Source: Coriobacteriia bacterium
Lineage (GTDB): Bacteria; Actinomycetota; Coriobacteriia; Anaerosomatales; PHET01
Assembly (NCBI GenBank): GCA_034370385.1
Contig: JAXMKZ010000019.1
Span: 49,003 to 113,002, forward strand
Length of the DNA: 64,000 bases
Reading direction: 5' to 3'
In this document: piece after piece, positions 25,200-64,000 of the stretch
How positions within the stretch are numbered: the stretch's first letter is position 1
How the letters are laid out: each line of letters starts with the position of its first letter
The notes under the pieces: generated by a model
Databases searched by the model: none
The model's input: only the letters and a program-made list of their open reading frames with translations
What the model was told of the DNA's origin: nothing
Made by a program: the position numbers and the translations under genes

Positions 25200-25289
25200 T
25201 CGCCGTTCGTTGACGGCGACGGCCGGCACCGTCGCGTGGCCTCGATGCATCATCAGTCGCGGGTCACCGCTCGTCGAGAAGGTGGGTAC

Positions 25290-43133: not shown

Positions 43134-43230
43134 GGCTCTTGCCTCCTTCCGTGTAGCGGACGCCGTTCCCTTCGCGGGGATGGTGAGATACTCTGCGTTG
43201 AGGTAGGCGGGCTCAACCGAGGGGGTCTTG

Positions 43231-44549: not shown

Positions 44550-47500
44550 GTGGACGTTTTTGACCTTCGCGAGCGGCTTGTCGGCGACTTCTCGGAGTAT
44601 GCCAAGAGCTTCATGAACATCGCGGATGCACGCATCCACGAGCTCGTCGACACCAAGCTCGAAGAGGGTCTCCTTTGGCCCGACCCAAAGGTCCAGTTGA
44701 ACCCGGCATTCGAGCGTGGCGGCAGCGTCGATGATCTCGTGAACGAGGGCGTCCTGCACTCGGAGTGCTCGCGCATCTTCCGTCGCAGCAAGACCCCCGG
44801 TGCGGGACAGGGCTCGTTCGGCGAGCAGATGCACCTTCATCGGCACCAGGACGATGCGATTCGAGTCGCCCGCAGCGCAGAGAACTACGTTCTGACCACG
44901 GGCACCGGGTCCGGCAAGAGCCTCGCCTACATCATTCCGATCGTTGACCATGTGCTTCGTCGCGGGAGCGGCAAGGGCATCCAGGCGGTCATCGTTTACC
45001 CCATGAACGCACTGGCGAACAGCCAGTTCGGCGAGCTTGAGAAGTTCCTGAAGCATGGCTATCCACCAGGCGGCCAGCCGGTGACGTGGCGGCGATACAC
45101 GGGCCAGGAGTCCGATGAGGAACGGCGCGAGATCATCGCGAATCCCCCCGACATACTGCTCACCAACTACGTCATGCTCGAACTCATCCTGACCCGTCCC
45201 GACGAAGGCAAGCTCGTCAAAGCTATGCGTGGACTGCAGTTTCTGGTCTTCGATGAACTCCATACCTATCGCGGGCGTCAGGGCTCCGATGTTGCCATGC
45301 TCATGCGCCGGGTGCGCGAGGCATGCGAATCACCCGCTCTTCAGCACGTCGGCACATCGGCAACACTTGCCGGCGAGGGCACGGTTGCGGCGCAGAAGAT
45401 CGAGGTAGCGCGACTTGCGACGACGCTGTTCGGCGCCACCGTGAAGCCCGAGTGCGTCATCGGGGAGACGCTGCGGCGAGCAACATCGGGTTCCCCAACG
45501 GCGGTAGAACTCGGCACCCGTCTCGGCGTCGGCGTCACCGCACCAGAGACCTACGAGGCGTTCGCGGCGGACCCACTGGCGGCATGGATCGAGACGACGC
45601 TCGGCCTGGCGGAGGAGCCCGAGACCGGCGTCCTCATACGGCAGACTCCACGCAACGTCGGCGAGGCGGCCACGCTGCTCTCCGAGCAGAGCTCAGTGCC
45701 CGAGGAGCGCTGCGCAGAGGCGATTCGCGACTGCCTGATGACCGGCTACCACGTCCACGATCCCGATGCAGGCAGCCCCGTGTTCGCATTCCGCCTCCAC
45801 CAGTTCATCAGCCGAGGCGACACGGTCTATGCGACACTCGAGCCGCCGGAATCGCGCGAGATTACCACCGAACCGCAGCGATTCGCACCGAGCTCACGCG
45901 ACAAGGTTCTGATGCCGCTCGCGTTCTGCCGGGAATGTGGCCAGGAATACTACGTCGCGCAGCTCGAATCGCGTCCTGACGACCAGGACCGTCTCGTCAA
46001 ACGAGAGATGCGGGATCGCGAAAAGACCGACTCCATCAAGCCGGGCTACCTTTATGTGAGCACAACCGCGCCCTGGCCTGATGACGACGAAGTGGAGCTG
46101 GTGAACCTCGTTCCGCAGACATGGACCGAGGAGCACAACGGGCTGACCCGTCTCAAACGCCACTATCGTGAGCAGCTGCCCACGCGGGTCTATGTGGGCG
46201 GAGACGGAACCATTGGTGGCGGTGGCAACGAGGCATGGTTCGTGCCGGCGCCTTTCAGGTTCTGCCTCAAGTGCGGTGTCGCGCACAGCTCCAACATCCG
46301 TTCGGACTTCGGCAAGCTGGCGACGCTCGGCACTGAGGCTCGAAGCACGGCGACCACTATTCTCGCCATCACAGCGCTTCGCAACTTGCGCGCTGACCTG
46401 TCCCTCAGCGAGAGGGCTCGTAAGCTTCTGAGCTTCTCGGACAACCGTCAGGACGCTGCGCTTCAAGCCGGCCACTTCAACGACTTCGTCGAGGTGGGAC
46501 TGCTTCGCTCCGGCCTCTACCACGCCGCGATGAGTGCCGGCGAGCAAGGCCTCGGCCACCAGGAACTCACTACGAGCGTGATGGAGGCCATGGGCCTGGT
46601 ACCGATGGACTACGCCGCCGCTCCCGAGGCCAAGTTCGCCGCCGAGCGACGAGCGCGTGAGGCGCTGCTCGATGTGGTCGGCTACCGCCTCTACCGCGAC
46701 ATGCAGCGCGGATGGCGACTGACTTCCCCAAACCTGGAGCAGTGCGGGCTCCTTCGCGTCGAGTACGAGGACCTGGCGGAACTGTGCGCCGACGAGGAAT
46801 CCTGGAGGGGCTGCCATGAGGCGCTTCTCGAAGCGGAGCCCCAGCTGCGCGAAGAAGTCTCGAAAGCCTTGCTGGACCACATGCGTCGCGTTCTCGCCAT
46901 CAAGGTTCAGTTCCTTGACCCCAATCGGCTTGAGCAGATGAAGTCGCAGTCGTACACGAACCTGCGTGACCCGTGGGACTTCAGCACTGAGAACCTCGAA
47001 TACGCGACTGTCGTGTTCCCACGCACCCGGAGCAAGGCCGATGACCGTTCCTACACCTTCGTCTCAGGGCGATCCGGTTTTGCGCGCTACATCTCGCAGA
47101 ACGGCAAACTCGGCGGCGGCGAGCCTATCTCCCGCGATGACTGCCAACTGATAATCGGCCAGATGTTGAATGTTCTCGCCAGCGCCGGTCTCGTTGAGCA
47201 GGTTATCGATGCCGAGCGCGACGAGGACGTTCCCGGCTATCAGCTTCAGTCGGCGGCTATGCGCTGGATTCCCGGCGATGGAACTACCCCCGCCCATGAC
47301 CCGGTGCGCGTGCCGCGGCTGCCTGCAGAAGGCGCACGGGTCAACGCGTTCTTCGTGGACTACTACCGCACCAAGGCATCCACGCTCAAGGACATGCGTG
47401 CCGCCGAGCACACGGCGCAGGTCCTGAGCGAAGAGCGCGAGCGCCGCGAAGAGGCGTTTCGCGAGGCGAAGCTCCCACTGCTGTTCTGCTCGCCCACGAT

Positions 47501-49724
47501 GGAACTGGGCGTCGACATCTCTGAACTCAACTGCGTCAACATGCGCAACGTGCCTCCGACGCCGGCGAACTACGCTCAACGAAGCGGACGCGCGGGACGC
47601 AGCGGGCAGCCGGCGCTGGTATTCACCTACTGCTCGGCTGGCAGCCCGCACGATCAGTACTTCTTCCGTCGGCCGGAGGAGATGGTGTCCGGACAGGTGA
47701 CACCGCCTCGCCTGGACCTCTCGAACGAGGATCTTCTCAGGGCCCACGTCCACTCGATCTGGATACACGAGGCTGGCCTCGCACTGGGTCGCTCGCTCGG
47801 AAAGGTACTCGATGTCGAGGGCGATACGCCCTCGCTCGAACTGCTGCCGACAGTCCTGGAGAAGCTCGAGAACGCCACCGCGGCGACGCGAACCATCGAA
47901 CGAGCTCGTCGCGTGCTCGATTCCATTCCCATGGAGATGCTGCCCGCGGACTGGAACGCCGAGCAGTGGCTGGGCGCGGTCGTTCGAGCGCTGCCGCGTG
48001 ATTTCCAGGATGCGTGCGACCGGTGGCGCGAACTCTATCGCGCAGCGATGGCACAGCAGGCCCGGGCGAACCGCACCATGCTCGACGCATCGAGCTCGAT
48101 GAAGGACAAGAACAGCGCCAAGGCCGCTCGTGCCGAGGCGGAGGCGCAGCTCGGGCTCTTGCTGGCCTCCAACGACCGCATCATGCAATCGGACTTCTAC
48201 AGCTATCGCTACTTTGCGAGCGAGGGCTTCCTGCCGGGCTACAACTTCCCACGGCTGCCACTGTCCGCGTTCATTCCAGGCCGGCGAGGAGGCCGGGGGA
48301 CCGACGAGTTCCTGTCGCGTCCGCGTTTCCTGGCTATCTCGGAGTTCGGCCCAAACGCCTACGTCTACCACGAGGGATTGCGCTACCAGATCGTGAAGGC
48401 GGTGCTGCCAGTCGAGGCCGAGGGCACGGGCACCGAGCGAATCCTGAAGCGGAGCATCAAGCTGTGCTCCGAATGCGGATACCTGCACCCCATCGAGCAG
48501 ATTGCGCCCGACATCTGCGCCAGTTGCGGCGCTGAACTGCCGGCACCGGTGGACCAGCTCTTCCGGCTGACCAACGTGGGTACGCGTCGTCGCGACCGGA
48601 TCAACAGCGACGAAGAGGAGCGCCAGCGCCAGGGGTTCGAGCTCACCACGGCGTTCCGCTTTGCCGAGCGCGAAGGCGAGCTCTCTAAGCGCACTGCAGT
48701 AGCCTCCTTCGACGGGGAGACCATCGCGGACCTTGCCTACGGCCATTCGGCAACACTCTGGCGCATGAATCTCGGACTGAAGCGGCGCAAGGACCAGGCC
48801 GTGAAGGGCTTCCTCATCGACGTCGATTCCGGGATGTGGGCCAAGTCAGAAGAGGTGGAGGACACGGCCGGCAAGAACGAGACCGAGCCGCAGGCCAAGC
48901 GGACCGAGCGGGTCGTGCCCTTCGTCGAGGATCGCCGGAACTGCCTCGTGTTCACGCCGACCGGCGAATGGGACTCGACGGTGATGGCGTCGCTTTCCGC
49001 CGCGCTCAAGAGCGCCATTCAGGTCACCTACCAGCTCGAGGACTCGGAGCTCGCCGTTGAGCCTCTGCCGGACCGTGCGGGCCGCCGGGCCCTGCTCTTC
49101 TACGAGGCGGCGGAAGGCGGCGCTGGCGTTCTCCGTCGTCTGGTGGAGGATCCAACCGCGCTGCCGAGGGTCGCAGCACGAGCGCTTGAGCTCTGCCATT
49201 TCGACCCGAGCGGTACCGACATGGGATACGCACGCGGAGCCAAGGAGCCTTGCACGGCGGCCTGCTACGACTGCCTGATGTCCTACTACAACCAGCCCGA
49301 CCACGAGCTTCTTGACCGCTTCCAGATATCGGGCCTGCTTCTCCAGCTAGCCAAGTCCTCCGTTGAGGTCTCACCCAACGCGCTGCCGCGTGAAGAGCAC
49401 TTCGAGCGCCTTATGCGACTCACGGATTCGGATCTCGAGCGGAAGTGGCTCACGACGCTGCGTGACGCCAGCCTACGGCTTCCCACCGATGCCCAGCCAT
49501 TGGTCGAAGCGGCGGGGGCTCGTCCCGACTTCCTCTACCGCGATCACTCAGTCGCGATATTCATCGACGGCCCGGTTCACGATGATGAGGCCACCGCAGC
49601 AGACGATTCGGTCAAGCGCGAGGCCCTCGACGACCTTGGCTACACGATGATCGTGTTCCGCTACGACGATGACTGGCCCGCACTCCTCAAGCGATTCCCC
49701 GAAGTCTTCGGAGGTTCCAGGTGA
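44550..49724 (+). CDS. DEAD/DEAH helicase with DUF1998 and C-terminal Vsr/DUF559-like nuclease domain
   Basis: I chose GTG 44550 (VDVFDLRERLVGDFSEYAKS), the usual opening of these helicases; ATG 44445 is an in-frame alternative. 1724 residues. Walker A GTGSGKS (118-124), DELH box at D235, motif VI QRSGRAGR from Q1010, and DUF1998 near E1522 (EGGAGVLRRL...CYDCLMSYYNQPDHELLDR, with cysteines for zinc). Cys pairs CRECG, CLKCG and CSECG...CASCG also occur. The tail has RPDFLYRD (D1660) and AIFIDGPVHDD (D1673, H1677), as in Vsr/DUF559 PD-(D/E)XK nucleases. DUF1998 helicases are central to DISARM (DrmA/B) and Druantia (DruE). First gene of the operon; its stop overlaps the next start. Confidence 0.88.
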   Translation: MDVFDLRERLVGDFSEYAKSFMNIADARIHELVDTKLEEGLLWPDPKVQLNPAFERGGSVDDLVNEGVLHSECSRIFRRSKTPGAGQGSFGEQMHLHRHQDDAIRVARSAENYVLTTGTGSGKSLAYIIPIVDHVLRRGSGKGIQAVIVYPMNALANSQFGELEKFLKHGYPPGGQPVTWRRYTGQESDEERREIIANPPDILLTNYVMLELILTRPDEGKLVKAMRGLQFLVFDELHTYRGRQGSDVAMLMRRVREACESPALQHVGTSATLAGEGTVAAQKIEVARLATTLFGATVKPECVIGETLRRATSGSPTAVELGTRLGVGVTAPETYEAFAADPLAAWIETTLGLAEEPETGVLIRQTPRNVGEAATLLSEQSSVPEERCAEAIRDCLMTGYHVHDPDAGSPVFAFRLHQFISRGDTVYATLEPPESREITTEPQRFAPSSRDKVLMPLAFCRECGQEYYVAQLESRPDDQDRLVKREMRDREKTDSIKPGYLYVSTTAPWPDDDEVELVNLVPQTWTEEHNGLTRLKRHYREQLPTRVYVGGDGTIGGGGNEAWFVPAPFRFCLKCGVAHSSNIRSDFGKLATLGTEARSTATTILAITALRNLRADLSLSERARKLLSFSDNRQDAALQAGHFNDFVEVGLLRSGLYHAAMSAGEQGLGHQELTTSVMEAMGLVPMDYAAAPEAKFAAERRAREALLDVVGYRLYRDMQRGWRLTSPNLEQCGLLRVEYEDLAELCADEESWRGCHEALLEAEPQLREEVSKALLDHMRRVLAIKVQFLDPNRLEQMKSQSYTNLRDPWDFSTENLEYATVVFPRTRSKADDRSYTFVSGRSGFARYISQNGKLGGGEPISRDDCQLIIGQMLNVLASAGLVEQVIDAERDEDVPGYQLQSAAMRWIPGDGTTPAHDPVRVPRLPAEGARVNAFFVDYYRTKASTLKDMRAAEHTAQVLSEERERREEAFREAKLPLLFCSPTMELGVDISELNCVNMRNVPPTPANYAQRSGRAGRSGQPALVFTYCSAGSPHDQYFFRRPEEMVSGQVTPPRLDLSNEDLLRAHVHSIWIHEAGLALGRSLGKVLDVEGDTPSLELLPTVLEKLENATAATRTIERARRVLDSIPMEMLPADWNAEQWLGAVVRALPRDFQDACDRWRELYRAAMAQQARANRTMLDASSSMKDKNSAKAARAEAEAQLGLLLASNDRIMQSDFYSYRYFASEGFLPGYNFPRLPLSAFIPGRRGGRGTDEFLSRPRFLAISEFGPNAYVYHEGLRYQIVKAVLPVEAEGTGTERILKRSIKLCSECGYLHPIEQIAPDICASCGAELPAPVDQLFRLTNVGTRRRDRINSDEEERQRQGFELTTAFRFAEREGELSKRTAVASFDGETIADLAYGHSATLWRMNLGLKRRKDQAVKGFLIDVDSGMWAKSEEVEDTAGKNETEPQAKRTERVVPFVEDRRNCLVFTPTGEWDSTVMASLSAALKSAIQVTYQLEDSELAVEPLPDRAGRRALLFYEAAEGGAGVLRRLVEDPTALPRVAARALELCHFDPSGTDMGYARGAKEPCTAACYDCLMSYYNQPDHELLDRFQISGLLLQLAKSSVEVSPNALPREEHFERLMRLTDSDLERKWLTTLRDASLRLPTDAQPLVEAAGARPDFLYRDHSVAIFIDGPVHDDEATAADDSVKREALDDLGYTMIVFRYDDDWPALLKRFPEVFGGSR

Positions 49725-52543
49725 GCTTCGCTGTCGGCGCTTTGGTGCGTGCCCGCAATCGGGAGTGGGTTGTCCTTCCGGACTCAACGGACGAACTCCT
49801 CCTGCTCAGGCCCCTCGGTGGCACAGATGAAGAGCGCGCTGGAGTCCTCACTGCCCTTGAGACTGTGGAGCCGGCCACCTTCGGGCTCCCGGACCCGGAC
49901 AAGGCTGGCGATTTCCAATCAGCCAGGTTGTTGCGCGATGCCCTGCGTCTCGGGTTCCGTTCCGGCGCCGGGCCGTTCCGATCGCTTGGCCGCATCGCAT
50001 GCGAGCCCCGGCCCTATCAGCTAGTGCCGCTGCTCATGGCGCTGCGCCAAGACCCCGTTCGTCTGCTCATCGCCGACGACGTCGGTATCGGCAAGACCAT
50101 CGAGGCAGGACTCATCGCCCGAGAGATGCTGGACCAGGGCGAGACCACACGGCTCTCGGTCATCTGCCCTCCGCACCTCGCCGAGCAGTGGAAGCGCGAG
50201 CTGTCCGAGAAGTTCCACATCGATGCCGAGCTCGTGCTGGCCTCGACCGCGCGTCGCTTGGAGCGGGGTCTCGAACACGGCGAGTCGCTCTTCTCCCACT
50301 ATCCCTTCACCGTGGTCTCCCTCGACTTCATCAAGACCGACCAGCACCGTGATTCCTTCCTGCGCGCGGCCCCGGAGCTCATCATCGTGGATGAGGCGCA
50401 CACCTGTGCGTTCGGCGCTCAGGAGCGGGGCAGGATGCAGCGATTCGAGCTGCTTCAGGCCCTGGCAAAGGACCCAAAGCGCCACATTCTGCTCGTGACT
50501 GCCACCCCCCACAGCGGCAAACAGAATGCGTTTCGTTCGCTGCTTGAGCTGCTAGAACCGTCACTCGCGAACATGCCCGACGAACTCACGGGCGCCGAGA
50601 ACTCCATCTATCGACGTGAGCTCGCCAAGTACCTCGTCCAGCGGCGTCGAGGTGACATCCAGCGGTATCTGGAGACCGACACTGCGTTTCCTAAGCGCAA
50701 GGATGCCGAGCTGACCTACGCTCTCTCCCCCGAGTACCACCAGCTCTTCGAGGACGCCGTTGCCTACGCGAAGAACAGCGCCAGCAAGGGCGGTGACGAG
50801 CGCACGAAACGCCTGCGCTGGTGGGCGCTCGTCAGTCTCCTGCGGTCAATCGGGTCCTCGCCGGCCGCTGCGGCCGAGACGCTGCGCAACCGTGCTCCCG
50901 GTCTCGACACGGAGAACGTCGACCAGCTCGATGAGCTGGGTCGCAGCATGGTGCTGGGCTTCGAGGAAGACGAGACCGAGTCCAGCGACGTAGTTCTGGG
51001 TGCGGAGCTCGACGAGAAGGTGGGCTTCAGCAGCTCCGAGCGCAAGCAACTCCGTGAGCTCGCAGACCGTGCCGAGCTGCTCAAGGGAGACAAGGACCCT
51101 AAGCTCACGGGCGTCGTGAAGATAGTGAAAGACCTGCTGAAGGATGGCTTCAACCCAATCGTGTTCTGCTACTACATCCCGACTGCGGAGTACGTGGCCG
51201 AGGAGCTGCGCTCGCGCTTGCCCAAGAAGGTCGCGGTCGAGGCCGTCACCGGAAGGCTCGCACCCGAGGGGCGTGAGGCCCGTATCGAGGAGCTCGCCGA
51301 GCACGAACAGCGCGTCCTGGTCGCCACCGACTGCCTGAGCGAGGGAGTGAACCTCCAGAACGTCTTCGACGCCGTCGTCCACTACGACATGTCGTGGAAT
51401 CCCACCACCCACGAACAGCGCGAGGGCCGGGTAGACCGCTTTGGCCAGCTCAACCCCGAGGTTCGGGTGGTCACCTATTTCGGCAAGGACAACCCGATAG
51501 ACGGAATCGTGTTGAACGTCCTGATTCGCAAGCACAAGGCGATCCGAAATGCGCTAGGAGTCTCGGTCCCGGTTCCCGCGGGGTCCGAGACGGTGGTCGA
51601 GGCGATCTTCGAGGGACTCGTCATCCGCGAGGCGAGTGGTGCGAGAGGCGAGCAGCTCCAGCTCGACATGGCGGAGTTCATCAAGCCCAAGCAGATGCAG
51701 CTCGATGCCGAGTGGGACGCAGCCGAAAACCGCGAGAAGCGCTCGCGCACCGTCTTCGCGCAGGAAACCATCAAGCCGGATGAGGTCGCGGCTAGGCTCG
51801 CAGAGGTGGTCGAGCAACTTGGCTCCCAAGTGGAGGTTCGCGAGTTTGTGATTGCTGCGCTCAAGGCAGCGGGCGCGCGAGTGAGTGGTGTGGGCGTGCT
51901 CGCGGTTGACCTTCGCGAAGCGAGAGTCGACCTCCGCGACCTCATCGGTCGCGAGAGGAAGAGCCTCGAGATCGCCTTCGAGCCCTCCGCGAAGCCGGAG
52001 CAGATCTACCTTCATCGCACGCACCCAATCGTCGAAGCCATCGCCACATGGGTGCTCGACACCGCGCTGGACGATATTGCGGTTGGGCCTGCGCAAAGGG
52101 CTGGCGTCATGCGCACGGATGCGGTCTCGGTGCGAACTACGCTTCTGCTCACGCGCTATAGATTCTCAGTCGATGCGAAGCGCGGTGATGCCGAGCGTCG
52201 CCTTCTTGCAGAAAGCTCAGGCATGCTCGCATTCCGAGGCTCACCGACATCTCCAGAATGGCTCGGCGCAGATGAGATCGCCGCACTACTGAAGGCACGG
52301 CCATCCGGCAACGTGGTTGGCGCGAGTGAGTCGATCCGCAAAGTGCTGGACGCCTACCCGGGACAGCTTGCCGCCTTCGTGGATTCCGACGCAGGGGTGC
52401 GGGCGACGGCGCTGGAGTCGGAATACCGCGAGATGCGTGAGGCCGCACGCCTGAAGGGCGTGAGCTATCGAGTGACCCATCTGCCACCAGACGTTCTAGG
52501 CGTCTACGTGTTCGTCCCGCAGACCGCCGGACAGGTGAGCTGA
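49721..52543 (+). CDS. SNF2-family helicase (DrmD/RapA-like)
   Basis: GTG at 49721 overlaps the previous stop; 940 residues. Motif I DDVGIGKTIEAGL (K125), DEAH in IIVDEAHTCAF (D224), TATPHSGK (motif III), and the C-terminal helicase half NPIVFCYYIPTAEYVAEEL, ATDCLSEGVNLQN and HEQREGRVDRFGQ (~R566). The N-terminal ~80 residues form a small beta-rich lead-in, and ~300 residues follow the helicase core. A SNF2 helicase next to an adenine methyltransferase is the drmD-drmMI arrangement of class 1 DISARM. It presumably translocates on duplex DNA. The stop is two bases before the methyltransferase ATG. Confidence 0.9.
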   Translation: MSFAVGALVRARNREWVVLPDSTDELLLLRPLGGTDEERAGVLTALETVEPATFGLPDPDKAGDFQSARLLRDALRLGFRSGAGPFRSLGRIACEPRPYQLVPLLMALRQDPVRLLIADDVGIGKTIEAGLIAREMLDQGETTRLSVICPPHLAEQWKRELSEKFHIDAELVLASTARRLERGLEHGESLFSHYPFTVVSLDFIKTDQHRDSFLRAAPELIIVDEAHTCAFGAQERGRMQRFELLQALAKDPKRHILLVTATPHSGKQNAFRSLLELLEPSLANMPDELTGAENSIYRRELAKYLVQRRRGDIQRYLETDTAFPKRKDAELTYALSPEYHQLFEDAVAYAKNSASKGGDERTKRLRWWALVSLLRSIGSSPAAAAETLRNRAPGLDTENVDQLDELGRSMVLGFEEDETESSDVVLGAELDEKVGFSSSERKQLRELADRAELLKGDKDPKLTGVVKIVKDLLKDGFNPIVFCYYIPTAEYVAEELRSRLPKKVAVEAVTGRLAPEGREARIEELAEHEQRVLVATDCLSEGVNLQNVFDAVVHYDMSWNPTTHEQREGRVDRFGQLNPEVRVVTYFGKDNPIDGIVLNVLIRKHKAIRNALGVSVPVPAGSETVVEAIFEGLVIREASGARGEQLQLDMAEFIKPKQMQLDAEWDAAENREKRSRTVFAQETIKPDEVAARLAEVVEQLGSQVEVREFVIAALKAAGARVSGVGVLAVDLREARVDLRDLIGRERKSLEIAFEPSAKPEQIYLHRTHPIVEAIATWVLDTALDDIAVGPAQRAGVMRTDAVSVRTTLLLTRYRFSVDAKRGDAERRLLAESSGMLAFRGSPTSPEWLGADEIAALLKARPSGNVVGASESIRKVLDAYPGQLAAFVDSDAGVRATALESEYREMREAARLKGVSYRVTHLPPDVLGVYVFVPQTAGQVS

Positions 52544-52545
52544 CC

Positions 52546-55500
52546 ATGGCCCGGACGCAGAGCACATTCAGCACTGTTCGCACTGAAGGCTCGCTCCTGC
52601 CGGCAGACTTCCTCCAGCGTCTGCTGACACCGAAGTCGGACATCGAAGGGCTTCGTTCCGAGGACTACCACCTTGTGGGGCGCGAACGGATTGATGACGC
52701 GGCCAGCCGTTCATGGCTCAGGCTTGTAGGGGCCTGGTCCGCATTCCGCGGCCAACTCCAGCGTCTGTCTACCGACGACACTGCAACCACTATTACGCGC
52801 GAGAAGTGGCTCTACGTGCTCTTTTCCGAACTCAACTACGGTCGTTTGGAGGCAGCCAGGGGCATCACCGCCGAGGGCAAGCCGTATCCTGTCTCTCATC
52901 TTTCCGGGAGCGTGCCGCTGCACCTCGTAGGCGCGAATATCGACCTCGACAAGCGCACGAAGGGGGCTGCTGGAGCTGCAACGATGAGCCCCCATGGTCT
53001 CGTCCAGGAGCTGCTCAATCGCTCTGATGGCTACCTCTGGGGCGTTGTCTCGAACGGTCGGATCCTGCGCGTCCTTCGGGACAACGCAGCCATGACGCGA
53101 CAGGCGTTCGTGGAGTTCGATTTGGAGGCGATGCTCGAGGGCCAGGAGTATCACGACTTCGTGTTGCTCTGGATGCTGCTCCACCAGTCGCGCCTCGAGG
53201 GGGAGCGACCCGAAGAGTGTTGGCTTGAGAAGTGGGTTGCGACCAACCGCTCCCAGGGCACGCGCGCACTGGACGCATTGCGCGGCGGCGTGGAAGCCGC
53301 CATCACAGCGTTGGGCACTGGACTGGTCTCGCACCGAGGCAACAGCAACCTGAAGACCGCCCTGCGTGATGGCGATCTCGACAAACACGACCTCTACCGG
53401 CAAGTCCTCCGCGTCGTCTATCGCCTGATTTTCCTCTTTGCGACAGAGGACCGCGAGCTGGTCTTCTCCCCCGGGGCGACACGAGAAGCGAAAGACCGCT
53501 ATCTCAAGTACTACTCAGTGTCTCGCCTTCGCCGACTCGCAGAACGCAGGCGAGGCGACGGACAGTCCGACCTATGGCAACAGCTCCTGCTCACATTCGA
53601 GCTGTTCGCCACGGGCGAGGGTGAAAGCTCGCTGGGCGTGCCCTTCGTCGGAGGGCTATTCCGAGACAACGATCCGCTGCTGGCGAATTCGCAAGTGTCG
53701 AACCTTCATCTACTGGAGGCCATCCGTGCCCTTACCTCGGTTCTCGACGGCAAGGCGCGGCGCCGTGTGGACTACCGGAATCTCGGGGCGGAGGAGCTTG
53801 GCAGCGTCTACGAATCGCTTCTTGAACAGCACCCGAACCTCAACCTAGAGACGGGCTCGTTTGAACTCGGGACTGCTGCCGGATCTGAGCGCAAGACCAC
53901 GGGCAGCTACTACACGCCGAGCTCGCTTATCGGCTTGCTACTCGACTCCGCTCTGGAGCCCGTGCTCGAGGAGCGAATCGAGACAGCGCGCAAGGAAAAG
54001 CGTGACGTCGAGGAGGCCATTCTTGACCTTAAGGTGTGCGATCCAGCATGCGGCTCCGGGCATTTCCTCATCGCCGCCGCGCATCGAATCGCTCGGGAGC
54101 TCGCCAAGGTTCGGACCGGCGATGACGAGCCTTCACCCTCTGCCCAGCGCCATGCGCTGCGCGACGTAGTCTCGCGCTGCATCTACGGTGTGGACATTAA
54201 CCCGATGGCGGTTGAGCTCGCCAAGGTGGGGCTCTGGCTTGAGGCTATCGAGCCCGGAAAACCGCTATCGTTTCTCGATCATCACCTCAAGCAGGGCAAC
54301 TCGCTTCTAGGTGCTACACCGGCGTTGATTGATATGGGGATTCCGGACGAGGCCTTCGTGCCCATCGAAGGTGACGACAAGAAGATCGCTTCCTCGTACA
54401 AGGCACGCAACAAGTCGGCACGTGGCGGTCAGATGGATCTACTCGCGGCAGAGGAGCCGAGTGACTATGGAGCGCGGCTCGCTGACGATCTAGCACGCAT
54501 CGATGCTATGTCCGACGAGACACCGGAGCGGCTAGCGGACAAGGAGTCGGCCTTCAGCGCATTCTCACGGTCCGCACTGTACTCGGACTCGAAGCTCGTG
54601 GCTGATGCCTACTGTGCCGCCTTCGTGTGGCCTGCTGCCACTGGCGCGCCGGCTCCGATTACGCAGGGCGTTCTTGAAGGACTCCGCGGCGGCACTAACC
54701 CGCTCAGCGCGGATTCGAGCACTACCGTGGCGGCGCTCGCCGACGTGTACGAGTGGTTCCACTGGCACCTGCAGTTTCCCGACGTATTCCTCACATCGGC
54801 ACGCTATTCATCGGCTTTCCCTGATGGCTGGGCTGGAGGGTTTGACTGTGTTCTCAGCAACCCGCCATGGGAGCAGATGGAGGTTGACGAGAAGGAGTAT
54901 TTCGCCGAGCGCGAGCCTCGGATCGCTGGAGCGCGTAACTCGCATGCCCGCAAGCAGCTGATAGCGAAGCTGTCGACGGAAGACCCATCGCTGATCGAGG
55001 CGTTCGTGGCGGAACGCCGGCGTGTGGCGGGGGCAGTTCATTTTGCGAGGGCTTCGGGGCGCTTTCCGCTTTCGGCAATGGGCAGACCCAACACGTATCG
55101 ACTGTTTGCGGAGGCGATGACCTCGATAGCCGGCGGCGACGGCCGTATCGGCTGCGTACTGCCCACGAGCATTGCCACAGACGACATGACGAAGGTGTTC
55201 TTCGGAGCTCAGGTGGCGTTGGGAACTCTCGTGAGCCTCTATGACTTCGAGAACAAGCGACGAATCTTCCCTGCGGTGGGCACCGTCTTCCACTTCTGCC
55301 TTCTCACGATGACGGGTGGAGCACGACGAGACCAGCCCGCCGAGTTCGCATTCAACCTACTGGCGGTGCAGCAAGTCCGGGATAGCGACCGTGTGTATCG
55401 GCTGTCCGCCGGTGAAGTCGCTTTGGTGAATCCCCTGACGCGGACCGCCCCGATGTTCGCGAGTCGCGACGACGCCGACGTTGCGTTACGCATCTACTCG

Positions 55501-56466
55501 TCCGTCGACGCCCTCAATGCAAGCCCGCAAGAGCCCGGTGGCGCTTGGAGCATTCGTCTGCGCCAGGGTCTGTTCAACATGGCTACCGACTCGGGGCTGT
55601 TCAGAGTGCTGGAGGACCTCGAGGCAGCGGGCTACCAGCGGCACTCGAATCGCTTCGAACTCGAAGATGCCCTTCTGCTTCCACTCTATGAAGCGAAGCT
55701 GTTCACTCAGTATGATTATCGATTCGGGACCTTCGAAGGGATTCCGGCTAGCAAACGATTCGGCGTGAAGGCGGCGCCCGATCGCGTGGATGGGTGCCGT
55801 CACGGAGATGCATCGTTCGCGGTGATGCCCCGCTACTGGGTCTCAAGCGAGGCGGTGCAAGGGCGTGTGGGCGATGAATGGGAATACGAGTGGATGCTCG
55901 CCTGGAGGAACGTCACCCGGGGTCAGGCGAGCGCAAGGTCCCTAATTGTGGGGGTCATCCCCATGGTCGGAGTGGGCCATTCGGCGCCCGTCATTTTCCC
56001 TCGCCAGCCGCCGGCTCTGATTGCCGGGCTCGTGGCGATGCTGAACTCCTTCGTTGTGGACTACGCGGCGCGACTGAAGCTCGCTGGTCCCAATCTCACA
56101 TTCGGGATCCTGAACCAGCTACCGGTGCTGCCTCCGCAGGCCTTGATCGATCGAGGTGATGCGCGTTTCGGGCCCAAGTGGTTCGCGGAGCGCGTTCTCG
56201 AGTTGGTCTACACCTCAGCAGAGATGGAGCCGTTCGCGCGCGACTTGGCCTATGAGGGAGAGCCCTTTGCCTGGGACGAGGCGCGCCGGTTCGAACTTCG
56301 ATGTCAGATTGACGCTGCGGTGTTCCATCTCTACGGCGTAGCACTCGCGGATGTCGAGCACATCATGGACACCTTCACGGTCATCAGGGCTGCCGAAGCA
56401 GCGCGCTTCGGCGGCTACCGCACGAAGCACCGTATTCTCGAGTTGTTCGACGAGTACTCCAATTAG
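52546..56466 (+). CDS. Large N6-adenine DNA methyltransferase (PglX/DrmMI/Eco57I-like)
   Basis: This 1306-residue protein has SAM motif I DPACGSGHFLIAAAHR (D499) and the catalytic NPPW (N772) in FDCVLSNPPWEQMEVDEKEY, the gamma-class order of Eco57I, PglX and DrmMI. KTTGSYYTPSSLIGLLLD precedes motif I. The N-terminal ~480 residues resemble the helical region of these large enzymes; no PD-(D/E)XK motif is evident there, so it looks like a methyltransferase without its own nuclease. The last ~250 residues (LPVLPPQALIDRG, GEPFAWDEARRFELRCQID) fit a target-recognition domain. It would mark self DNA for the helicase/nuclease partners. Confidence 0.9.
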   Translation: MARTQSTFSTVRTEGSLLPADFLQRLLTPKSDIEGLRSEDYHLVGRERIDDAASRSWLRLVGAWSAFRGQLQRLSTDDTATTITREKWLYVLFSELNYGRLEAARGITAEGKPYPVSHLSGSVPLHLVGANIDLDKRTKGAAGAATMSPHGLVQELLNRSDGYLWGVVSNGRILRVLRDNAAMTRQAFVEFDLEAMLEGQEYHDFVLLWMLLHQSRLEGERPEECWLEKWVATNRSQGTRALDALRGGVEAAITALGTGLVSHRGNSNLKTALRDGDLDKHDLYRQVLRVVYRLIFLFATEDRELVFSPGATREAKDRYLKYYSVSRLRRLAERRRGDGQSDLWQQLLLTFELFATGEGESSLGVPFVGGLFRDNDPLLANSQVSNLHLLEAIRALTSVLDGKARRRVDYRNLGAEELGSVYESLLEQHPNLNLETGSFELGTAAGSERKTTGSYYTPSSLIGLLLDSALEPVLEERIETARKEKRDVEEAILDLKVCDPACGSGHFLIAAAHRIARELAKVRTGDDEPSPSAQRHALRDVVSRCIYGVDINPMAVELAKVGLWLEAIEPGKPLSFLDHHLKQGNSLLGATPALIDMGIPDEAFVPIEGDDKKIASSYKARNKSARGGQMDLLAAEEPSDYGARLADDLARIDAMSDETPERLADKESAFSAFSRSALYSDSKLVADAYCAAFVWPAATGAPAPITQGVLEGLRGGTNPLSADSSTTVAALADVYEWFHWHLQFPDVFLTSARYSSAFPDGWAGGFDCVLSNPPWEQMEVDEKEYFAEREPRIAGARNSHARKQLIAKLSTEDPSLIEAFVAERRRVAGAVHFARASGRFPLSAMGRPNTYRLFAEAMTSIAGGDGRIGCVLPTSIATDDMTKVFFGAQVALGTLVSLYDFENKRRIFPAVGTVFHFCLLTMTGGARRDQPAEFAFNLLAVQQVRDSDRVYRLSAGEVALVNPLTRTAPMFASRDDADVALRIYSSVDALNASPQEPGGAWSIRLRQGLFNMATDSGLFRVLEDLEAAGYQRHSNRFELEDALLLPLYEAKLFTQYDYRFGTFEGIPASKRFGVKAAPDRVDGCRHGDASFAVMPRYWVSSEAVQGRVGDEWEYEWMLAWRNVTRGQASARSLIVGVIPMVGVGHSAPVIFPRQPPALIAGLVAMLNSFVVDYAARLKLAGPNLTFGILNQLPVLPPQALIDRGDARFGPKWFAERVLELVYTSAEMEPFARDLAYEGEPFAWDEARRFELRCQIDAAVFHLYGVALADVEHIMDTFTVIRAAEAARFGGYRTKHRILELFDEYSN

Positions 56467-56497
56467 CGGAAGAGTGCAGCAGCGCCCCGGAGGCCAT

Positions 56498-57424
56498 ATG
56501 CCAGCAGTTTGGTGGGTCAATCAAACAGAGCCGCAGTACTCCATCGACTTGAAACGGGGCTACCGTTGGTCCCCATCGAAGACGAAGTCCGGTGGAGTCC
56601 GTGAGGCATGGCGCTGCCTCGAAGACATGGTCCCGGGCGACATTTGGATTAGCTGGGAACGACAGTCCATCGTCGCGCTAGGGGTGGTTACGGCGGAGCC
56701 TGAGTCAGCGCCGTGGCCGGCTGATCAGGATGACCGAAGCGACTGGCCCGGAGCAGGCGGTATCCGAGTTCATTCTGAGAATGTGCCGCTGGACAAACCC
56801 ATTCGCGCCGACGAGATTCCCGCTGCCTGGAAGCGCGCGGCGGGACCGTTTCGCGCGAACCTCTGGGTGAAGCTGTCTTCGGTCGAAGCCGTCGTTCCAG
56901 AGGCTGCCGATGAGCTTCGTAAGATGTTCGTCGACCGATGGCCCGTGGGTTCCCCGTGGGGCGTCGACGCGCCGCCCGCCAGCTCGCCACGCGCCACGCG
57001 CTATTGGATAAACATCCATACGCCCGAGACTTGGGAGCGGTTCAGCGTGGGCGACATCGAGGTAGCCAGTTCACTGACCAAGGGAAGATCCATCGCCCGT
57101 GGTGACATCTTCATCAATTTCGTGACTGGCGATGGTGGGCGGTGGGTCTCCGCTGAGGAGATTGTCTCGGACGCTCGCCCGGCCCGTTCGAGGCCCTACG
57201 CGGGATATGACTCTCAGTGGGAATGGGCGGTGCGACCACTTACGGCTCGGCTGTCACTGCATGATGGCATTGTGACAAGGAAGACCGTCTCCAAACTCGA
57301 GATGTTCCGAGGGCACGAGGCGAACTGGGGAGTGCGCGTCCGACGCTCGGGAGTTGAAATACCCGAGTGCGACGCAGAGTTGATCATTGGGTGGATAGAT
57401 GCCGTATCTGAGAGGATGAGCTAA
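56498..57424 (+). CDS. Protein with two EVE/PUA-like domains
   Basis: ATG at 56498 with GGAGG; 308 residues. The first half reads PAVWWVNQTEPQYSIDLKRG, then GDIWISWERQSIVALGVVT, like EVE-domain proteins (WW/WxVNxxxPxxY near the start and GD-(x)-aromatic later). The second half repeats the layout: TRYWINIHTPETWERFSVG and RGDIFINFVTGDGGRWVSAEEIV. EVE and related PUA-like domains read modified bases and often accompany McrB-type GTPases in type IV restriction. It overlaps the mcrB-like start by one base. The match is from short motifs only; the second domain is less certain. Confidence 0.6.
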   Translation: MPAVWWVNQTEPQYSIDLKRGYRWSPSKTKSGGVREAWRCLEDMVPGDIWISWERQSIVALGVVTAEPESAPWPADQDDRSDWPGAGGIRVHSENVPLDKPIRADEIPAAWKRAAGPFRANLWVKLSSVEAVVPEAADELRKMFVDRWPVGSPWGVDAPPASSPRATRYWINIHTPETWERFSVGDIEVASSLTKGRSIARGDIFINFVTGDGGRWVSAEEIVSDARPARSRPYAGYDSQWEWAVRPLTARLSLHDGIVTRKTVSKLEMFRGHEANWGVRVRRSGVEIPECDAELIIGWIDAVSERMS

Positions 57425-60400
57425 TGGCCAGACTCGCGCGAGATGGCGCTGACAAGGTCTACGCGGTTGCGGAGCGCTTTCGAGTGGGCGCGCTTGAGTC
57501 CGATGGGTCGGTGCTGACGCCGGGCAGGGCCGTTTGGACCGCAGCGTCGCTGGACGAGATACGTGAACGCTTCACGATCAACTGGGATGGCGGCGAGGAC
57601 TCCTTCATGGAGAAGCTGAAGCGCCAGCTCGAGGGCGCCGATGATGATGTGATCCAGCTGATGGTCGAGGCGTTTCTCATGCACGTGCTCGTCACCGTGA
57701 GCATCGGCGGGGCGAAGAAGCGCGAGACTATCCATGAGATTCTGGGGTGGATGAAGGATCCGTGCGAATTGCCGCCAGAGGTCGATGCCGCACTCGACTA
57801 CGGCTTGGCGGGCACTGGAACGTTCTTCAACAGGGGCCGCGACCGCCAGATCCGGTTCATTATCGAGGCGATGCGCGCATGGAAGGCGCTCCCCGAGGAG
57901 GCTCGCGCTGCCGCGTCGGAGGACCCTTGGGCGTTCAAAGACCAGGTCTGCTCGATAGAGGTGAACAGCGCCTGGATGCAGCGCAGCGCCCTGCTCCACC
58001 TTCTCTTCCCCGAGACCTTCGAGCGCTCGTTGTCGCGTGAAGACAAGGCGCAGATAGTCTCTGCATTCGCCGATCTCATCGGCGGCGCGGAGCGTGCGAA
58101 GGAGCTCGACGAGGACCAAGCACTTCTGGCCATTCGCGAGGTTCTCAGCACGCAGTACGGGCCGGACTTCGACTACTACGACACGCCCGAGGTGTTCGCG
58201 CGCTGGCACGAAGCTGAGCCGACGACCGAGGTGCCGTTCCTGGACAGGGTCCTCACCGCCTATCCGGGCTGGACTGGGTTCTCGGACCCGCGCTTCATCA
58301 AGGACGAGGTCAACTACAAGCGCGTTGCGTCGGAGAACGCGCAGGCACTGCTCGGCGCGGAACCGCTACGAGGGCTCATCGACGCGGGGCAATTCACGGA
58401 AGTCATCTCCCGCGTGGAGAAGGTCGGCCAGTCAACCAATCTGCTGTGGCTTCAGGTTCCCAAGGACGGTGACCTCTCGCTGCTCTATCGGCAGGGGCTT
58501 GACCAGTCTGAGTTCGCAGAGCAGCTCTATGACCTACTACATGGCGAGGGTGAAAGCCCCACCAGGCTCGGACGCTTCACCGACTACACCACTGCTCGGG
58601 GTCTGCCGACCAAGTGGGCCCTTCCCACCTATCTGCTGATGCTGCTCCACCCGGAGACTGACTTCTTCGTAAAACCACGAGCCACCAAGTGGTTCCTAGA
58701 TGAGGTCGATGCTGGATTCGACTTGAGCTCCAAGGCATCGGGAGAGGTCTACGCGAGGATTCTCGAAGAGGTCGGCGCGCTGCGAGAGGCGCTTGCCGCT
58801 TATGAGCCGCAGTCGACGGTCGATGTGCAGGGATACATCTGGGTGGCGTTCCGCACTCCGCCAAACGCGGCCGCCGGAGTCGATGATCCCGATCCGCGCA
58901 CTCTCGCAGCGCCGTTTTCCCGCTTCTTCCTGGACTGGGAGACCGCGTGGTGGGCCTTCGACATCGCGAGAGATGGGCTGGTGCGTGCTGGGGTCGCTGG
59001 CCCTGATGACGACCGCCTGGCCGCGACGATGCCCGAGGGCCGACGAATCCACATTGACGTTGGAAGCTGGCTCCTATTTGGTCTCGGCAACGAGCGCTCA
59101 AAGGATCAGCAGATCGTCTTCCCGCTCACGAAGGACTCCGACCTCTACCAGATTGCCGGCGGCGGGACCGGATTTGCCGCTGACTCGAATGTGACCCTCG
59201 GCTGTCTTCCCCTCGCCGACGCGCGCGAAAGCGTGGATGCGCTCCACGCGGCGATGGAGCCGGCGCTGGATTCCGCGAAGATACTCTTTGAAGGCCATGT
59301 GCGCTCGCCCTACCGCGTTTACAGTCGGCCTGAGCTTGCCGAAGCCATATTCGATGATGAGAAGCGAGTGAGACTCTTGAGCGAAGGAATCGCAGCGCCC
59401 GAGCAATCATCTGTCTATGACCACATCGCCGCGGAGGGCTTTCACTTCCCCGACTGGTTGGTTACCGACTATGTGTTGTCGCTTGCGACCAAGCCATTCG
59501 TGATCCTCTCTGGCATTTCGGGCACGGGAAAGACGAAGATGGCGCAGCTCGTGAGCGCGCACGTCGCCCCCGCGTCGGTTCAAGATGTCGTGATCGCCCC
59601 GGATGCCGCAGGAGCGGCGCCCGGAGCCGTGCGGGTCGAGGTTCAGCGCAGCGCCTTCGAATACCGGAGGCTGACGATTCCCTTCGCGTTGGTCGAGGGA
59701 TTCACCGTCCCGGCTCCCAACACACCGCCGACCGACTTCGTGGTGCACGCCGGTGGCCAGCGTTGGGATGCGCGACTCTACGTTCATCCGTCCGGCAGGA
59801 ACGTGCAGGTTCACATGAAGCCGGAACTCCACGACTGGTTCCAGGCCAACGCGAGGCGGGGCGACTACTTGGAACTTCGACTGCTACCCTCCGAGGGCAT
59901 CCCCGACTTCGAGCTGGAGCTGGCCATCGTCGCGACGGAGCGTCGGAGTGAGCTCGTTCCTTCGCAGCGGATCGCGTTCCTGTCTGTCCGCCCGGACTGG
60001 ACCGATAACCGGGCGCTTCTCGGCTACTACAATCCGCTCACGCAGAAGTACCAGACGACTGAACTACTGCGGCTCCTGCTTCGTGCGCAGGCGAATCCCG
60101 ATGAGCCGCACTTCGTCATCCTCGACGAAATGAACCTCGCCAAGGTGGAGTACTACTTCTCGGACTTCCTCTCCGCGGTCGAGGCCGATTCGGAGCTGGT
60201 GCTTCATGACGCCGGAGAGGACCTGATTCTCGAGACCCTCGATGGAATCAGCGTTCCGCAAAGGCTGCGCGTGCCCACGAATGTAGTCTTCACCGGGACC
60301 GTCAACGTCGACGAGACAACCTACATGTTCAGCCCCAAGGTTCTGGACCGGGCGAACACGCTTGAGTTCAATGCGGTGGACTTGGTTTCGTATGGTTTGG

Positions 60401-60834: not shown

Positions 60835-62471
60835 TTCGACTCCGCACAGGAACCGGGTACGCGGAGGACGTCCCGACGGGCGCCGATGGCCGTATTCTGC
60901 TTTGGTGCTGGCAAGACTACCTTGTCGAGTCACCAGAGCAACCGGCGCTACCAGTCTCGTGTGTGACTCAGGAGCTGCCCTCGGAGGATGGATGGCGCGC
61001 GCTCGTCAACTTCGGCGACTATGTCGGGTTGCTCGATCTTGCCGGAAGCATCTGCGAGATTCGCTCGCACAAGCTCGATAGCAAGGGCTTCGACGATCTA
61101 CTGCTGGAGATTTCTGCGCGTATCGCCAACCTGCCTTTCGACGTCAATTCGCCGACGTTCGTGCCGTTCTCACGCGACGTCACCGACGAGCGCGATCGGC
61201 TCTATCAGGCATTCGTCTACCTGCGCTGGGCGATGTGGTCGAGCAGCCCGTCGCTGTTCGAATCCTGGGCAACAATCAGCGCGGACCCGCATCGGGTGCT
61301 CGTCCGCGAGGAGCGCCGCGAAACACCTTGGGACGCACGCGGAGTCACTCCTCGCACGCTCGAGCGCATCGCCTCGCATCCGGAGAACTGGGTTGAGCTC
61401 GATTCCGATTCACTGTTGAGTTCGACAGCATTGGCTCGCGCTCTCACGGATGATGCCGGACGTGCCCACTTCCCGCGCGAGGTCGTCGAGGTCATCGCCG
61501 AGCCGACGCTCGACACCCCCGAGAATCGTTTCGCCCGCCACTTCCTCTCCACTGCGCACGAATTGGTTGAGCGGCTCCTGGTTGTTCTCGGCCAGCAATC
61601 CGCAGTCGATCTGGATCTGACCGCCGATGCCGACAAGCTGGCGCAGGAGCTCCGTGCCATGCAACAGGCCCCATTCCTGCGCGAAGTCGGCGACCTGCGT
61701 TCATTCCCTGCGCAGTCCCAAGTGCTACAGAAGCGCACGGGCTACCGAGAGCTGCTGCTCCATTTCCATGCGCTATCGCTCGCGTCTCGGTATCCCATCT
61801 CGGCTGCCGACCTGACCCGGATCATCGAGACGAAGAGTGCCAGCCTGCTCTACGAGTATTGGTGCTTCTTCGAGATGGCCGAGCAGATTCGGCGACTGGG
61901 ATTGCGACCACTGCACGGCGTGCCGGTCGGTGGCGATGAGATGTCCGCGACGCTCAATGAGGGCATCAAGCTCGTGTTCGAGGATGGGGTGGAACTCCAC
62001 TACAACCGGAGCTTCTCTCGTGCGAATACGCAGTGGCGGTCGTACTCCGTCACGCTGCGTCCCGACATCGTCCTCAAAGTCGGGGACACCCTCCACCTGT
62101 TCGACGCGAAGTTCCGTATCGACCGCTGGGCCGTAGAGGACTTCGACGCGGACGCTGCAGCCAAGGAGGCCGTCGAGAACGATGACCGTGCCGGCCGCGC
62201 TTCGGCGATCTGGTGGAAGAACGCCGACATCCACAAGATGCACGCCTACCGAGATGCGCTAGGACGCGACGGCGCCCATGTGGCGACCGTGCGGATGCTG
62301 TATCCGGGGACACAGGAGGTCTTCTACCCGGCCGAACCGGGTGGAGGCGAGGGCGTGGGAGCTGTGCCACTGACGCCTAGGTGCGGCGCTGACGAACTGA
62401 GAGCAGTACTCCATGGCGTGCTGATCGCCAAGCCTGAGCGGGTGGCCCCACGTGCTGCTGGACGCTTATGA
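60831..62471 (+). CDS. mcrC: McrC-like PD-(D/E)XK nuclease (DUF2357)
   Basis: GTG at 60831 overlaps the mcrB stop (GTGA); 546 residues. The N-terminal ~300 residues belong to the DUF2357-type McrC lead region (LYQAFVYLRWAMWSSSPSLFESW). The nuclease core has LRPDIVLKVG (D412) and LFDAKFRID (D425, K427), the PD-(D/E)XK pattern, and IHKMHAYRDAL after it. It should cut DNA when the McrB motor arrives, as in type IV restriction. It is the last gene of the operon. 62472-62555 shows no gene. Confidence 0.9.
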   Translation: MIRLRTGTGYAEDVPTGADGRILLWCWQDYLVESPEQPALPVSCVTQELPSEDGWRALVNFGDYVGLLDLAGSICEIRSHKLDSKGFDDLLLEISARIANLPFDVNSPTFVPFSRDVTDERDRLYQAFVYLRWAMWSSSPSLFESWATISADPHRVLVREERRETPWDARGVTPRTLERIASHPENWVELDSDSLLSSTALARALTDDAGRAHFPREVVEVIAEPTLDTPENRFARHFLSTAHELVERLLVVLGQQSAVDLDLTADADKLAQELRAMQQAPFLREVGDLRSFPAQSQVLQKRTGYRELLLHFHALSLASRYPISAADLTRIIETKSASLLYEYWCFFEMAEQIRRLGLRPLHGVPVGGDEMSATLNEGIKLVFEDGVELHYNRSFSRANTQWRSYSVTLRPDIVLKVGDTLHLFDAKFRIDRWAVEDFDADAAAKEAVENDDRAGRASAIWWKNADIHKMHAYRDALGRDGAHVATVRMLYPGTQEVFYPAEPGGGEGVGAVPLTPRCGADELRAVLHGVLIAKPERVAPRAAGRL

Positions 62472-62555
62472 CCAGGCGCGTCAGCCCAGACAGAGCTTTC
62501 GATTGCCTCCACCTTGTCGCCCGCGGGATTTCCATCGGGAGACCCGGTCCTCGCA

Positions 62556-63846: not shown

Positions 63847-64000
63847 TTGCTCCTTCGCCTGCGCATTCCGGTGAAGCCGATCACCTGTTCCACGGCAAGC
63901 CGGACAGCGTTCCGCCGCAAGCCGGACGGTCTTGCGCCAGGCGGCGCTTCGTACACTCAGAGTGACGCGGTGTCCGGCTTCAGGTCAACTTCCGCGGACG

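What the first reader, a model, noticed from the sequence alone, without database searches (positions are those of the whole stretch)
44550..62471. Six-gene defence operon joining a DISARM/Druantia-like module to an EVE-McrB-McrC module
DUF1998 helicase, SNF2 helicase, adenine methyltransferase, EVE-like protein, McrB and McrC are co-directional. Adjacent genes overlap by 1-4 bases or lie within 31 bases. The first three resemble DISARM parts (DrmA/B fused, DrmD, DrmMI), but no PLD nuclease (DrmC) is present; nuclease functions instead lie in the helicase tail and McrC. A modification-based module and a modification-dependent McrBC module in one transcript must avoid self-attack, which suggests the McrBC half targets DNA lacking or carrying a specific mark. 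I do not recognise it as a named system; known relatives with similar mixes may exist.
Basis: partly seen in the sequence, partly recalled or inferred. Interest (0 to 1): 0.9.

Follow-up and report, generated by a model that had tools for sequence, protein, structure and literature searches.

The report
Two-part phage-defence operon with swappable readers
This bacterial gene cluster joins an ARMADA-type predicted phage-defence cassette to a predicted McrBC DNA-cutting module, and a predicted DNA-reading insert inside its McrB motor has switched between two types at least five times among relatives, so the two halves likely recognise invading DNA independently.

Summary
The six genes are real, intact, co-directional and spaced as stated. 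The first three fit ARMADA Type I, described in a 2025 preprint (PMC12458937); a prevalent association of a DISARM-like/YprA cassette with McrBC was reported in eLife 2024 (PMC11090510). So the general combination is in print. This variant differs. Its McrB has the NxD motif, whereas the published cassette-linked branch is NxxD. It combines that motor with an N-terminal domain mostly seen on NxxD motors and with a B3-like insert inside the GTPase domain. A stand-alone EVE protein related to the VcaM4I modified-cytosine reader precedes it. The insert comes in two very different types that change at least five times on a 22-protein McrB tree. The methyltransferase recognition half is hypervariable and does not follow the insert. 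I therefore favour two complementary arms: a mark-guided ARMADA arm for unmodified DNA and an EVE/B3-guided McrBC arm for modified DNA. That mechanism is inferred. In the samples searched, the halves mostly occur apart.

The parts
44550..49724 (+). g1: YprA-family helicase with MZB/DUF1998 (ARMADA Type I)
   Evidence: DEAD 95 bits, Helicase_C, MZB 42 bits; DruE3 317 bits, DrmA 48 bits; tree
49383..49721 (+). g1 tail: Vsr/DUF559-like nuclease, PDF...IDGPVHD motif intact
   Evidence: DUF559 23.4 bits, cut-off 20.6; alignment; motif and link to Vsr recalled
49721..52543 (+). g2: SNF2/BrxHII-like helicase of ARMADA
   Evidence: (PDLC02853 839 bits over full length; NCBI DrmD below cut-off)
52546..56466 (+). 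g3: PglX/type IIG-like predicted N6-adenine methyltransferase (NPPW, GSG motifs)
55423..56145 (+). g3 hypervariable part, predicted recognition part (residues 960-1200)
   Evidence: 28-43% to 11 nearest relatives whose residues 1-600 are 79-96% identical to it
56498..57424 (+). g4: stand-alone EVE protein, 308 aa
56498..56947 (+). g4 EVE domain (residues 1-150), related to the VcaM4I EVE domain
56960..57421 (+). g4 C-terminal half, related to the N-terminus of ~380-aa proteins; fold not resolved
   Evidence: low pLDDT
57424..60834 (+). g5: McrB-like AAA+ GTPase, NxD type
57424..58245 (+). g5 N-terminal domain (1-274), shared with NxxD McrBs
58888..59388 (+). g5 optional middle domain (489-655), present in some relatives and absent in others
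59569..59961 (+). g5 swappable insert (716-846), B3-like (tentative), between Walker A and the next motor segment
60304..60312 (+). g5 NxD signature N961-V-D963
   Evidence: meaning from PMC11090510
60831..62471 (+). g6: McrC (DUF2357 + PD-(D/E)xK nuclease)

Best explanation
The six genes are an ARMADA Type I cassette followed by an EVE-McrB-McrC module in one predicted operon, and they likely act as two complementary arms: predicted m6A marking with helicase-nuclease attack on DNA lacking the mark, and EVE/B3-guided McrBC cutting of DNA bearing foreign base modifications. Shown here: the gene content and order; intact catalytic motifs; the EVE fold of the first half of the g4 model and its sequence relation to the VcaM4I reader; the McrB fold of the g5 model; the NxD motif; two insert types that replace each other at sharp borders inside the McrB motor; hypervariability of the second half of g3; and the lack of correlation between insert similarity and that part of g3 in six loci. 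Inferred: g3 marks host DNA with m6A. g1 and g2 translocate on unmarked DNA and the Vsr-like tail of g1 cuts it. g4 acts in trans as the modified-base reader for McrBC, as a related EVE domain probably does where it is fused to McrB. The B3-like insert adds sequence context, and McrC cuts after GTP-driven translocation. On this reading the operon avoids self-attack because the McrBC arm does not read the mark that g3 makes.
Against: No activity was measured. Only 6 methyltransferase-McrB pairs could be compared, five of them linked by equal contig length rather than read DNA. The B3 assignment is weak: 12 of the 50 printed Foldseek rows (10 plant B3, 2 LlaJI.R1) have E 0.016-0.32 and probability 0.98-1.00, no row of the search passes E 0.001, and no range is printed; there is no sequence match to a B3 domain. 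The g4 model is poor beyond about residue 145. The host encodes a C5 methyltransferase beside a Vsr gene, so an arm that cut any 5mC would damage its own DNA unless context protects it. ARMADA mostly stood without McrBC in the phylum sample: McrB was recognised after the methyltransferase in 2 of 13 loci with at least 2 kb of sequence there. The one DNA-readable close relative of this McrB (L002) has the methyltransferase but no g4 match. The label is weakly clustered on the tree: 5 changes against a shuffled mean of 7.6, with 27 of 500 shuffles as low.
Confidence: 0.5

Rival explanations
1. Two separate defence systems are only neighbours in a defence island, with no shared mechanism.
For: In the Actinomycetota sample 21 of 396 genomes hold the g2 helicase at E 1e-60 and 2 of the 20 other loci have a McrB next to the cassette (13 of the 20 have 2 kb or more of sequence there); 2 of 80 genome loci with related McrB have a g3-like methyltransferase upstream, many flanks being short. 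Other cassettes have an HNH, SMC-annotated or OLD-like gene after the methyltransferase.
Against: The junctions overlap by 1-4 bases or lie within 31 bases. The 11 nearest methyltransferases form a discrete set (61-71% identity, next at 51%), of which 7 share a contig length with an EVE or McrB relative, against 0 of 107 farther ones of the 120 listed. Similar tight ARMADA-McrBC junctions occur in Nocardioides sp. JS614.
Confidence: 0.27
2. McrBC is the cognate restriction enzyme of g3, as in LlaJI: the B3-like insert binds a site and cuts it when g3 has not methylated it.
For: The Foldseek list for McrB includes the LlaJI.R1 N-terminal domain (E 0.07); LlaJI is a McrBC-like enzyme that restricts unmethylated DNA (PMC1459862, abstract).
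Against: Loci with 96-97% identical inserts have g3 parts 960-1200 only 32-39% identical. LlaJI uses two 5mC methyltransferases; none is among the six genes and g3 is of the N6 type. EVE would have no role.
Confidence: 0.13
3. The EVE-McrBC half reads the mark made by g3 itself and acts as a guard that attacks or kills when that mark appears on other DNA or becomes excessive.
For: A YTH domain, related to EVE and fused to an archaeal McrB, is reported to bind m6A in DNA (quoted in PMC7641849, passages); the genes are adjacent.
Against: Among solved structures the g4 EVE domain is closest to a 5mC/5hmC reader.
Confidence: 0.1

Closest known systems
ARMADA Type I (Bell et al. 2025 preprint, PMC12458937)
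   Different: Here it runs on into EVE, McrB and McrC; a term search of the preprint finds McrBC only as an association of canonical McrBC with a YprA cassette, in a remark on CoCoNuT McrB homologs and in a reference title
NxxD McrBC linked to a DISARM-like cassette (green branch, PMC11090510 Fig. 2 legend; Nocardioides JS614, locus L125, as an example found here)
   Same: Cassette, then McrB, then McrC in one direction with overlapping genes
   Different: GTMNTAD (NxxD) motor and no EVE gene between methyltransferase and McrB in L125; the window has NxD, a stand-alone EVE gene and a swappable insert
EVE-McrB fusions (PMC7641849) and EVE-HNH VcaM4I
   Same: EVE used as modified-base reader of a nuclease; fold and sequence relation
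   Different: EVE is a separate gene here, with an extra C-terminal half
LlaJI
   Same: McrBC-type pair; B3-like DNA-binding fold suggested
   Different: No 5mC methyltransferase among the six genes; the insert lies inside the GTPase domain and varies independently of g3 in the loci compared
BREX + BrxU island (PMC8565348)
   Same: A mark-based system and a modification-dependent enzyme giving complementary protection (abstract)
   Different: Different protein families; there the complementarity was measured

Membership tests
ARMADA Type I | YprA-like helicase with DUF1998/MZB | tested here: met
   (MZB 42 bits, cut-off 24.2)
ARMADA Type I | Order YprA, BrxHII-like, PglX-like methyltransferase | tested here: met
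   order as given in PMC12458937
ARMADA Type I | C-terminal predicted active Vsr-type nuclease on YprA | tested here: met
   DUF559 above cut-off on the tail alone (below it in the whole protein); the DG..H part of the motif is in the window and in 18 of 22 relatives; the link of DUF559 to Vsr is recalled
ARMADA Type I | YprA falls in the Type I clade | tested here: met
   Nested (SH-aLRT 98 with four relatives) in a set defined here by gene content, apart from two E. coli ARMADA II and one Druantia III row (quick tree); the preprint's own reference protein was not used; L131, the Druantia and the DrmA rows sit on long branches
ARMADA Type I | BrxA-like insert and a single insert in the OB region | not tested
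   no structure of g1 was predicted
DISARM | Separate DrmA and DrmB genes and a DrmC PLD nuclease | tested here: not met
   g1 is one protein with both parts; no PLD domain reported in the six genes
DISARM | DrmD identity of g2 at NCBI cut-off | tested here: not met
   333.9 bits against a cut-off of 610
Druantia Type III | DruE with DruH partner | tested here: inconclusive
   g1 scores DruE3 317 bits but lies apart from the one Druantia III row; DruH was not searched for
McrBC (type IV) | McrB-type AAA+ motor plus McrC with DUF2357 and PD-(D/E)xK | tested here: met
McrBC (type IV) | Cleavage dependent on DNA modification | not testable with these tools
   needs an enzyme assay
Cassette-linked NxxD McrBC branch | NxxD signature in McrB | tested here: not met
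   N-V-D (NxD) at 961-963
CoCoNuT | NxD McrB fused to long coiled coils | tested here: inconclusive
   NxD is met; coiled coils were not tested with a predictor
LlaJI-type | Two 5mC methyltransferases with a McrBC-like pair | tested here: not met
   single N6-type methyltransferase among the six genes

The most novel reading that the evidence does not exclude
The operon is a composite defence machine with three independently evolving recognition elements: the methyltransferase recognition half, a stand-alone EVE reader, and a cassette-like B3 domain lodged inside the McrB GTPase motor that lineages exchange by recombination, much as type I enzymes exchange target recognition domains. The motor would be re-aimed by replacing a domain between its Walker A helix and the next core strand.
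Probability: 0.4. Interest if true: 0.7.

Novelty: new variant of a known kind. Interest (0 to 1): 0.5.

Why it matters
ARMADA and McrBC are each known, and their association is in print, but how a mark-making cassette and a modification-dependent nuclease share one operon is open. This locus makes that testable: the mark (g3), the base reader (g4) and the motor insert (g5) vary separately among close relatives, so their roles can be told apart by comparing natural variants. Exchange of a recognition domain inside an AAA+ motor would be a further way in which restriction enzymes change targets.

Tried and rejected
DISARM and Druantia as names for g1-g3: DISARM rejected on gene structure and scores; Druantia set aside on the tree, though DruH was not searched for. 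PADLOC's 'DpdE' label for g2: the same model scores two other ARMADA I helicases at 578 and 1074 bits and an E. coli ARMADA II helicase at 135, so it looks like a family label for ARMADA I helicases and not evidence for 7-deazapurine chemistry.

The idea that the N-terminal domain of McrB is an ARMADA-coupling domain was rejected: it occurs in 25 of 396 genomes, and 22 of these are not among the 21 genomes with the g2 helicase at E 1e-60 (overlap G000, G118 by a weak match, G385).

LlaJI-like coupling was tested through g3/insert covariation and not supported. Scans of the insert, the middle domain and the N-terminal domain alone in Pfam gave nothing, and the insert had one PDB match by sequence at E 0.14, a sperm-tail protein, which I discount; the profile of the whole McrB matched no PDB chain at 0.001. 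The scan of viral contigs gave no relative of g4. No promoter-like site was found and terminator-like sites were fewer than in shuffles, so the transcript is neither supported nor excluded. The ORFs scanned around the operon include no integrase, and the repeat search over 38900-64000 showed no repeat of the tRNA end; other ORFs there were not scanned, and the window ends at the contig end. Three ORFs of L002 between methyltransferase and McrB had no Pfam match. The 50 VIA rows for the McrB model are AAA+ proteins, so they neither place nor exclude a B3 domain.

Rows dropped before counts: of the 44 proteins listed, 24 were used for the insert comparison and the 20 more distant ones (P0041-P0060) were not; of the 24, P0020 (partial) and P0040 (divergent insert, only weakly similar to either type, and extra N-terminus) were left out of the tree. 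In one search, 14 of the 20 fetched ARMADA loci were examined; in the other six the methyltransferase is cut or absent at a contig end. One listed far methyltransferase without a contig length was left out of the 107.

Not in print: searches, judged by their listings and by the passages that I opened, showed no paper describing exchange of an insert in McrB or this EVE-NxD-McrBC-ARMADA set; insertions into McrB GTPase domains as likely specificity domains are in print (PMC11090510). Figures and supplements were not readable.
Full report
What is there. Six intact genes lie on the + strand at 44550-62471 with overlaps of 1-4 bases or gaps of at most 31 bases. Catalytic motifs are present: Walker A and DELH in g1, GIGKT and DEAH in g2, NPPW and GSG in g3, GISGTGKT and N-V-D in g5, PD and DAK in g6.

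The first half. g1 has DEAD, Helicase_C and MZB/DUF1998 domains, scores 317 bits against a DruE model and 48 against DrmA, and ends in a DUF559/Vsr-like nuclease. g2 is a BrxHII/DrmD-like helicase below the NCBI cut-off for DrmD. g3 is a PglX/type IIG-like methyltransferase. This is the order and make-up of ARMADA Type I in the preprint PMC12458937 (I read parts 1-4 of 8 and the figure legends). A quick tree of g1 with 22 helicases from loci of the same gene content, two E. coli ARMADA II helicases, one Druantia III helicase and one DrmA puts g1 inside the first set.

How this McrB differs. The eLife survey places McrBs associated with a DISARM-like cassette in an NxxD branch (PMC11090510, passages; the figure itself was not readable). 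The window's McrB has NxD. Its N-terminal domain is related to that of an NxxD McrB that follows an ARMADA cassette in another genome of the phylum (31% over 262 residues). The domain occurs in 25 of 396 genomes; of 20 loci returned, the motor motif could be read in 9, 8 NxxD and 1 NxD, the window's own being cut there. So the protein combines parts found on both kinds of motor.

A domain inside the motor is exchanged. The 22 proteins compared, the window's own included, carry one of two insert types after the Walker A helix, about 20% identical between types and 52-100% identical to the type sequence within them. P0034 and P0038 have 93% identical motors and 82% identical N-termini but inserts of different type (20%); P0019 and P0030 have 72% identical motors, 56% identical N-termini and 87% identical inserts. 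In the pairs inspected the switch falls at the same two borders. On the tree of these 22 proteins, built without insert and middle domain, the insert type changes 5 times and the middle domain 6 times; strongly supported branches force the 5, and holding the 11 alpha proteins together is rejected (p 7.6e-06). 27 of 500 shuffles of the labels need as few changes, so the labels are only weakly clustered, as frequent swapping predicts. Foldseek lists plant B3 domains and the LlaJI.R1 N-terminal domain for this model (12 of the 50 printed rows, E 0.016-0.32, probability 0.98-1.00; no row of the search passes E 0.001). I place them on the insert because of their length (102-130 columns) and its strand-rich make-up; no range was printed.

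The mark and the insert vary separately. Among g3 and its 11 nearest relatives, residues 1-600 are 76-97% identical and residues 960-1200 25-84%. For six methyltransferase-McrB pairs (the window's own, and five inferred from equal contig lengths) insert identity and identity of the 960-1200 part are uncorrelated (Spearman 0.08, p 0.77, 15 comparisons that are not independent). The clearest cases have 97% and 96% identical inserts with 32% and 39% identical g3 parts. This speaks against McrBC as the restriction partner of g3, and against the insert reading the g3 mark.

Is the set conserved? Locally yes: the nearest 11 methyltransferases (61-71%) stand apart from the next (51%) in a list of 120 out of 7457, and 7 of 11 share a contig length with a g4 or g5 relative, against 0 of 107 more distant listed ones. 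4 of 11 g4 relatives share a contig length with a g5 relative, one pair with neighbouring locus numbers. Widely no: of 80 genome loci with related McrB, 2 have a g3-like gene upstream (L002, L021), many flanks being short. Of 21 genomes with the g2 helicase, 4 have a DUF2357 match, and besides the window one has it beside ARMADA (G176); another has an NxxD McrB and, by eye, a McrC-like gene there (L089). ARMADA followed by McrBC also occurs in Nocardioides sp. JS614 and, about 3 kb away with the methyltransferase annotated in two pieces, in Deinococcus radiodurans. The class-wide search for g4 did not complete; in the phylum sample 6 of 396 genomes have a match to the g4 alignment, five of them partial.

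Mechanism. I favour two arms with separate recognition: g1-g3 against DNA without the host mark, g4-g6 against DNA with foreign modifications. A related EVE domain sits inside an NxD McrB in another genome, so g4 probably serves g5 in trans. BREX with BrxU is a measured precedent for such complementarity (abstract), and a similar logic was proposed for stand-alone EVE proteins beside other restriction systems (PMC7641849, passages). The host's own C5 methyltransferase and Vsr gene mean that, if g4 reads 5mC, sequence context, perhaps from the insert, must spare host 5mC. No step of this mechanism has been measured.

Noticed in passing
L128 15001-20115 and L132 12001-17157; HNH genes at 26977-27777 and 24735-25520: Two ARMADA I loci (Sphingomonas MM-1, Paracoccus marcusii) whose YprA lacks the Vsr-like motif carry an HNH endonuclease gene downstream of the methyltransferase (directly, and as fourth gene); L089, with a degenerate tail, carries McrBC there. 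L090 also lacks the motif, and no nuclease was recognised after it. The tail nuclease may sometimes be replaced by one in trans.
   Followed up: partly
L096 13850-19547: Two neighbouring McrB genes appear by eye to have the same GTPase sequence but different N-termini (one EVE-like), and are followed by one McrC, after an ARMADA cassette.
   Followed up: no
L021 2-13103: In Nannocystis pusilla the ARMADA helicase and methyltransferase are followed by an AAA/OLD-like ATPase, an EVE-like NxD McrB and McrC (OLD and EVE labels by eye).
   Followed up: partly
L145 6694-12449 (own genome, contig C4): The host also encodes a Vsr gene, a C5 methyltransferase, an ATPase-like gene and an Mrr-helicase fusion in a row.
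   Followed up: partly
window 43228-44028: An ORF with collagen-like repeats from 27-base DNA repeats lies just before the operon.
   Followed up: no
window 62543-63865: Two duplicated stretches (80% and 90% identical) with zinc-ribbon ORFs on the - strand follow the operon near the contig end.
   Followed up: no
PADLOC model PDLC02853: A model labelled DpdE matches ARMADA I helicases best (839 bits for the window, 1074 and 578 for two others, 135 for E. coli ARMADA II); the label may mislead automatic annotation.
   Followed up: partly
L141, L142, L143: The C-terminal half of g4 is related to the N-terminus of 375-382-aa frames that may be another modified-base reader fused to a nuclease-like part (by eye).
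   Followed up: no
L125 1-39208: Nocardioides sp. JS614 plasmid pNOCA01 carries annotated DISARM genes (drmA, drmB) about 4 kb before an ARMADA-McrBC set.
   Followed up: no
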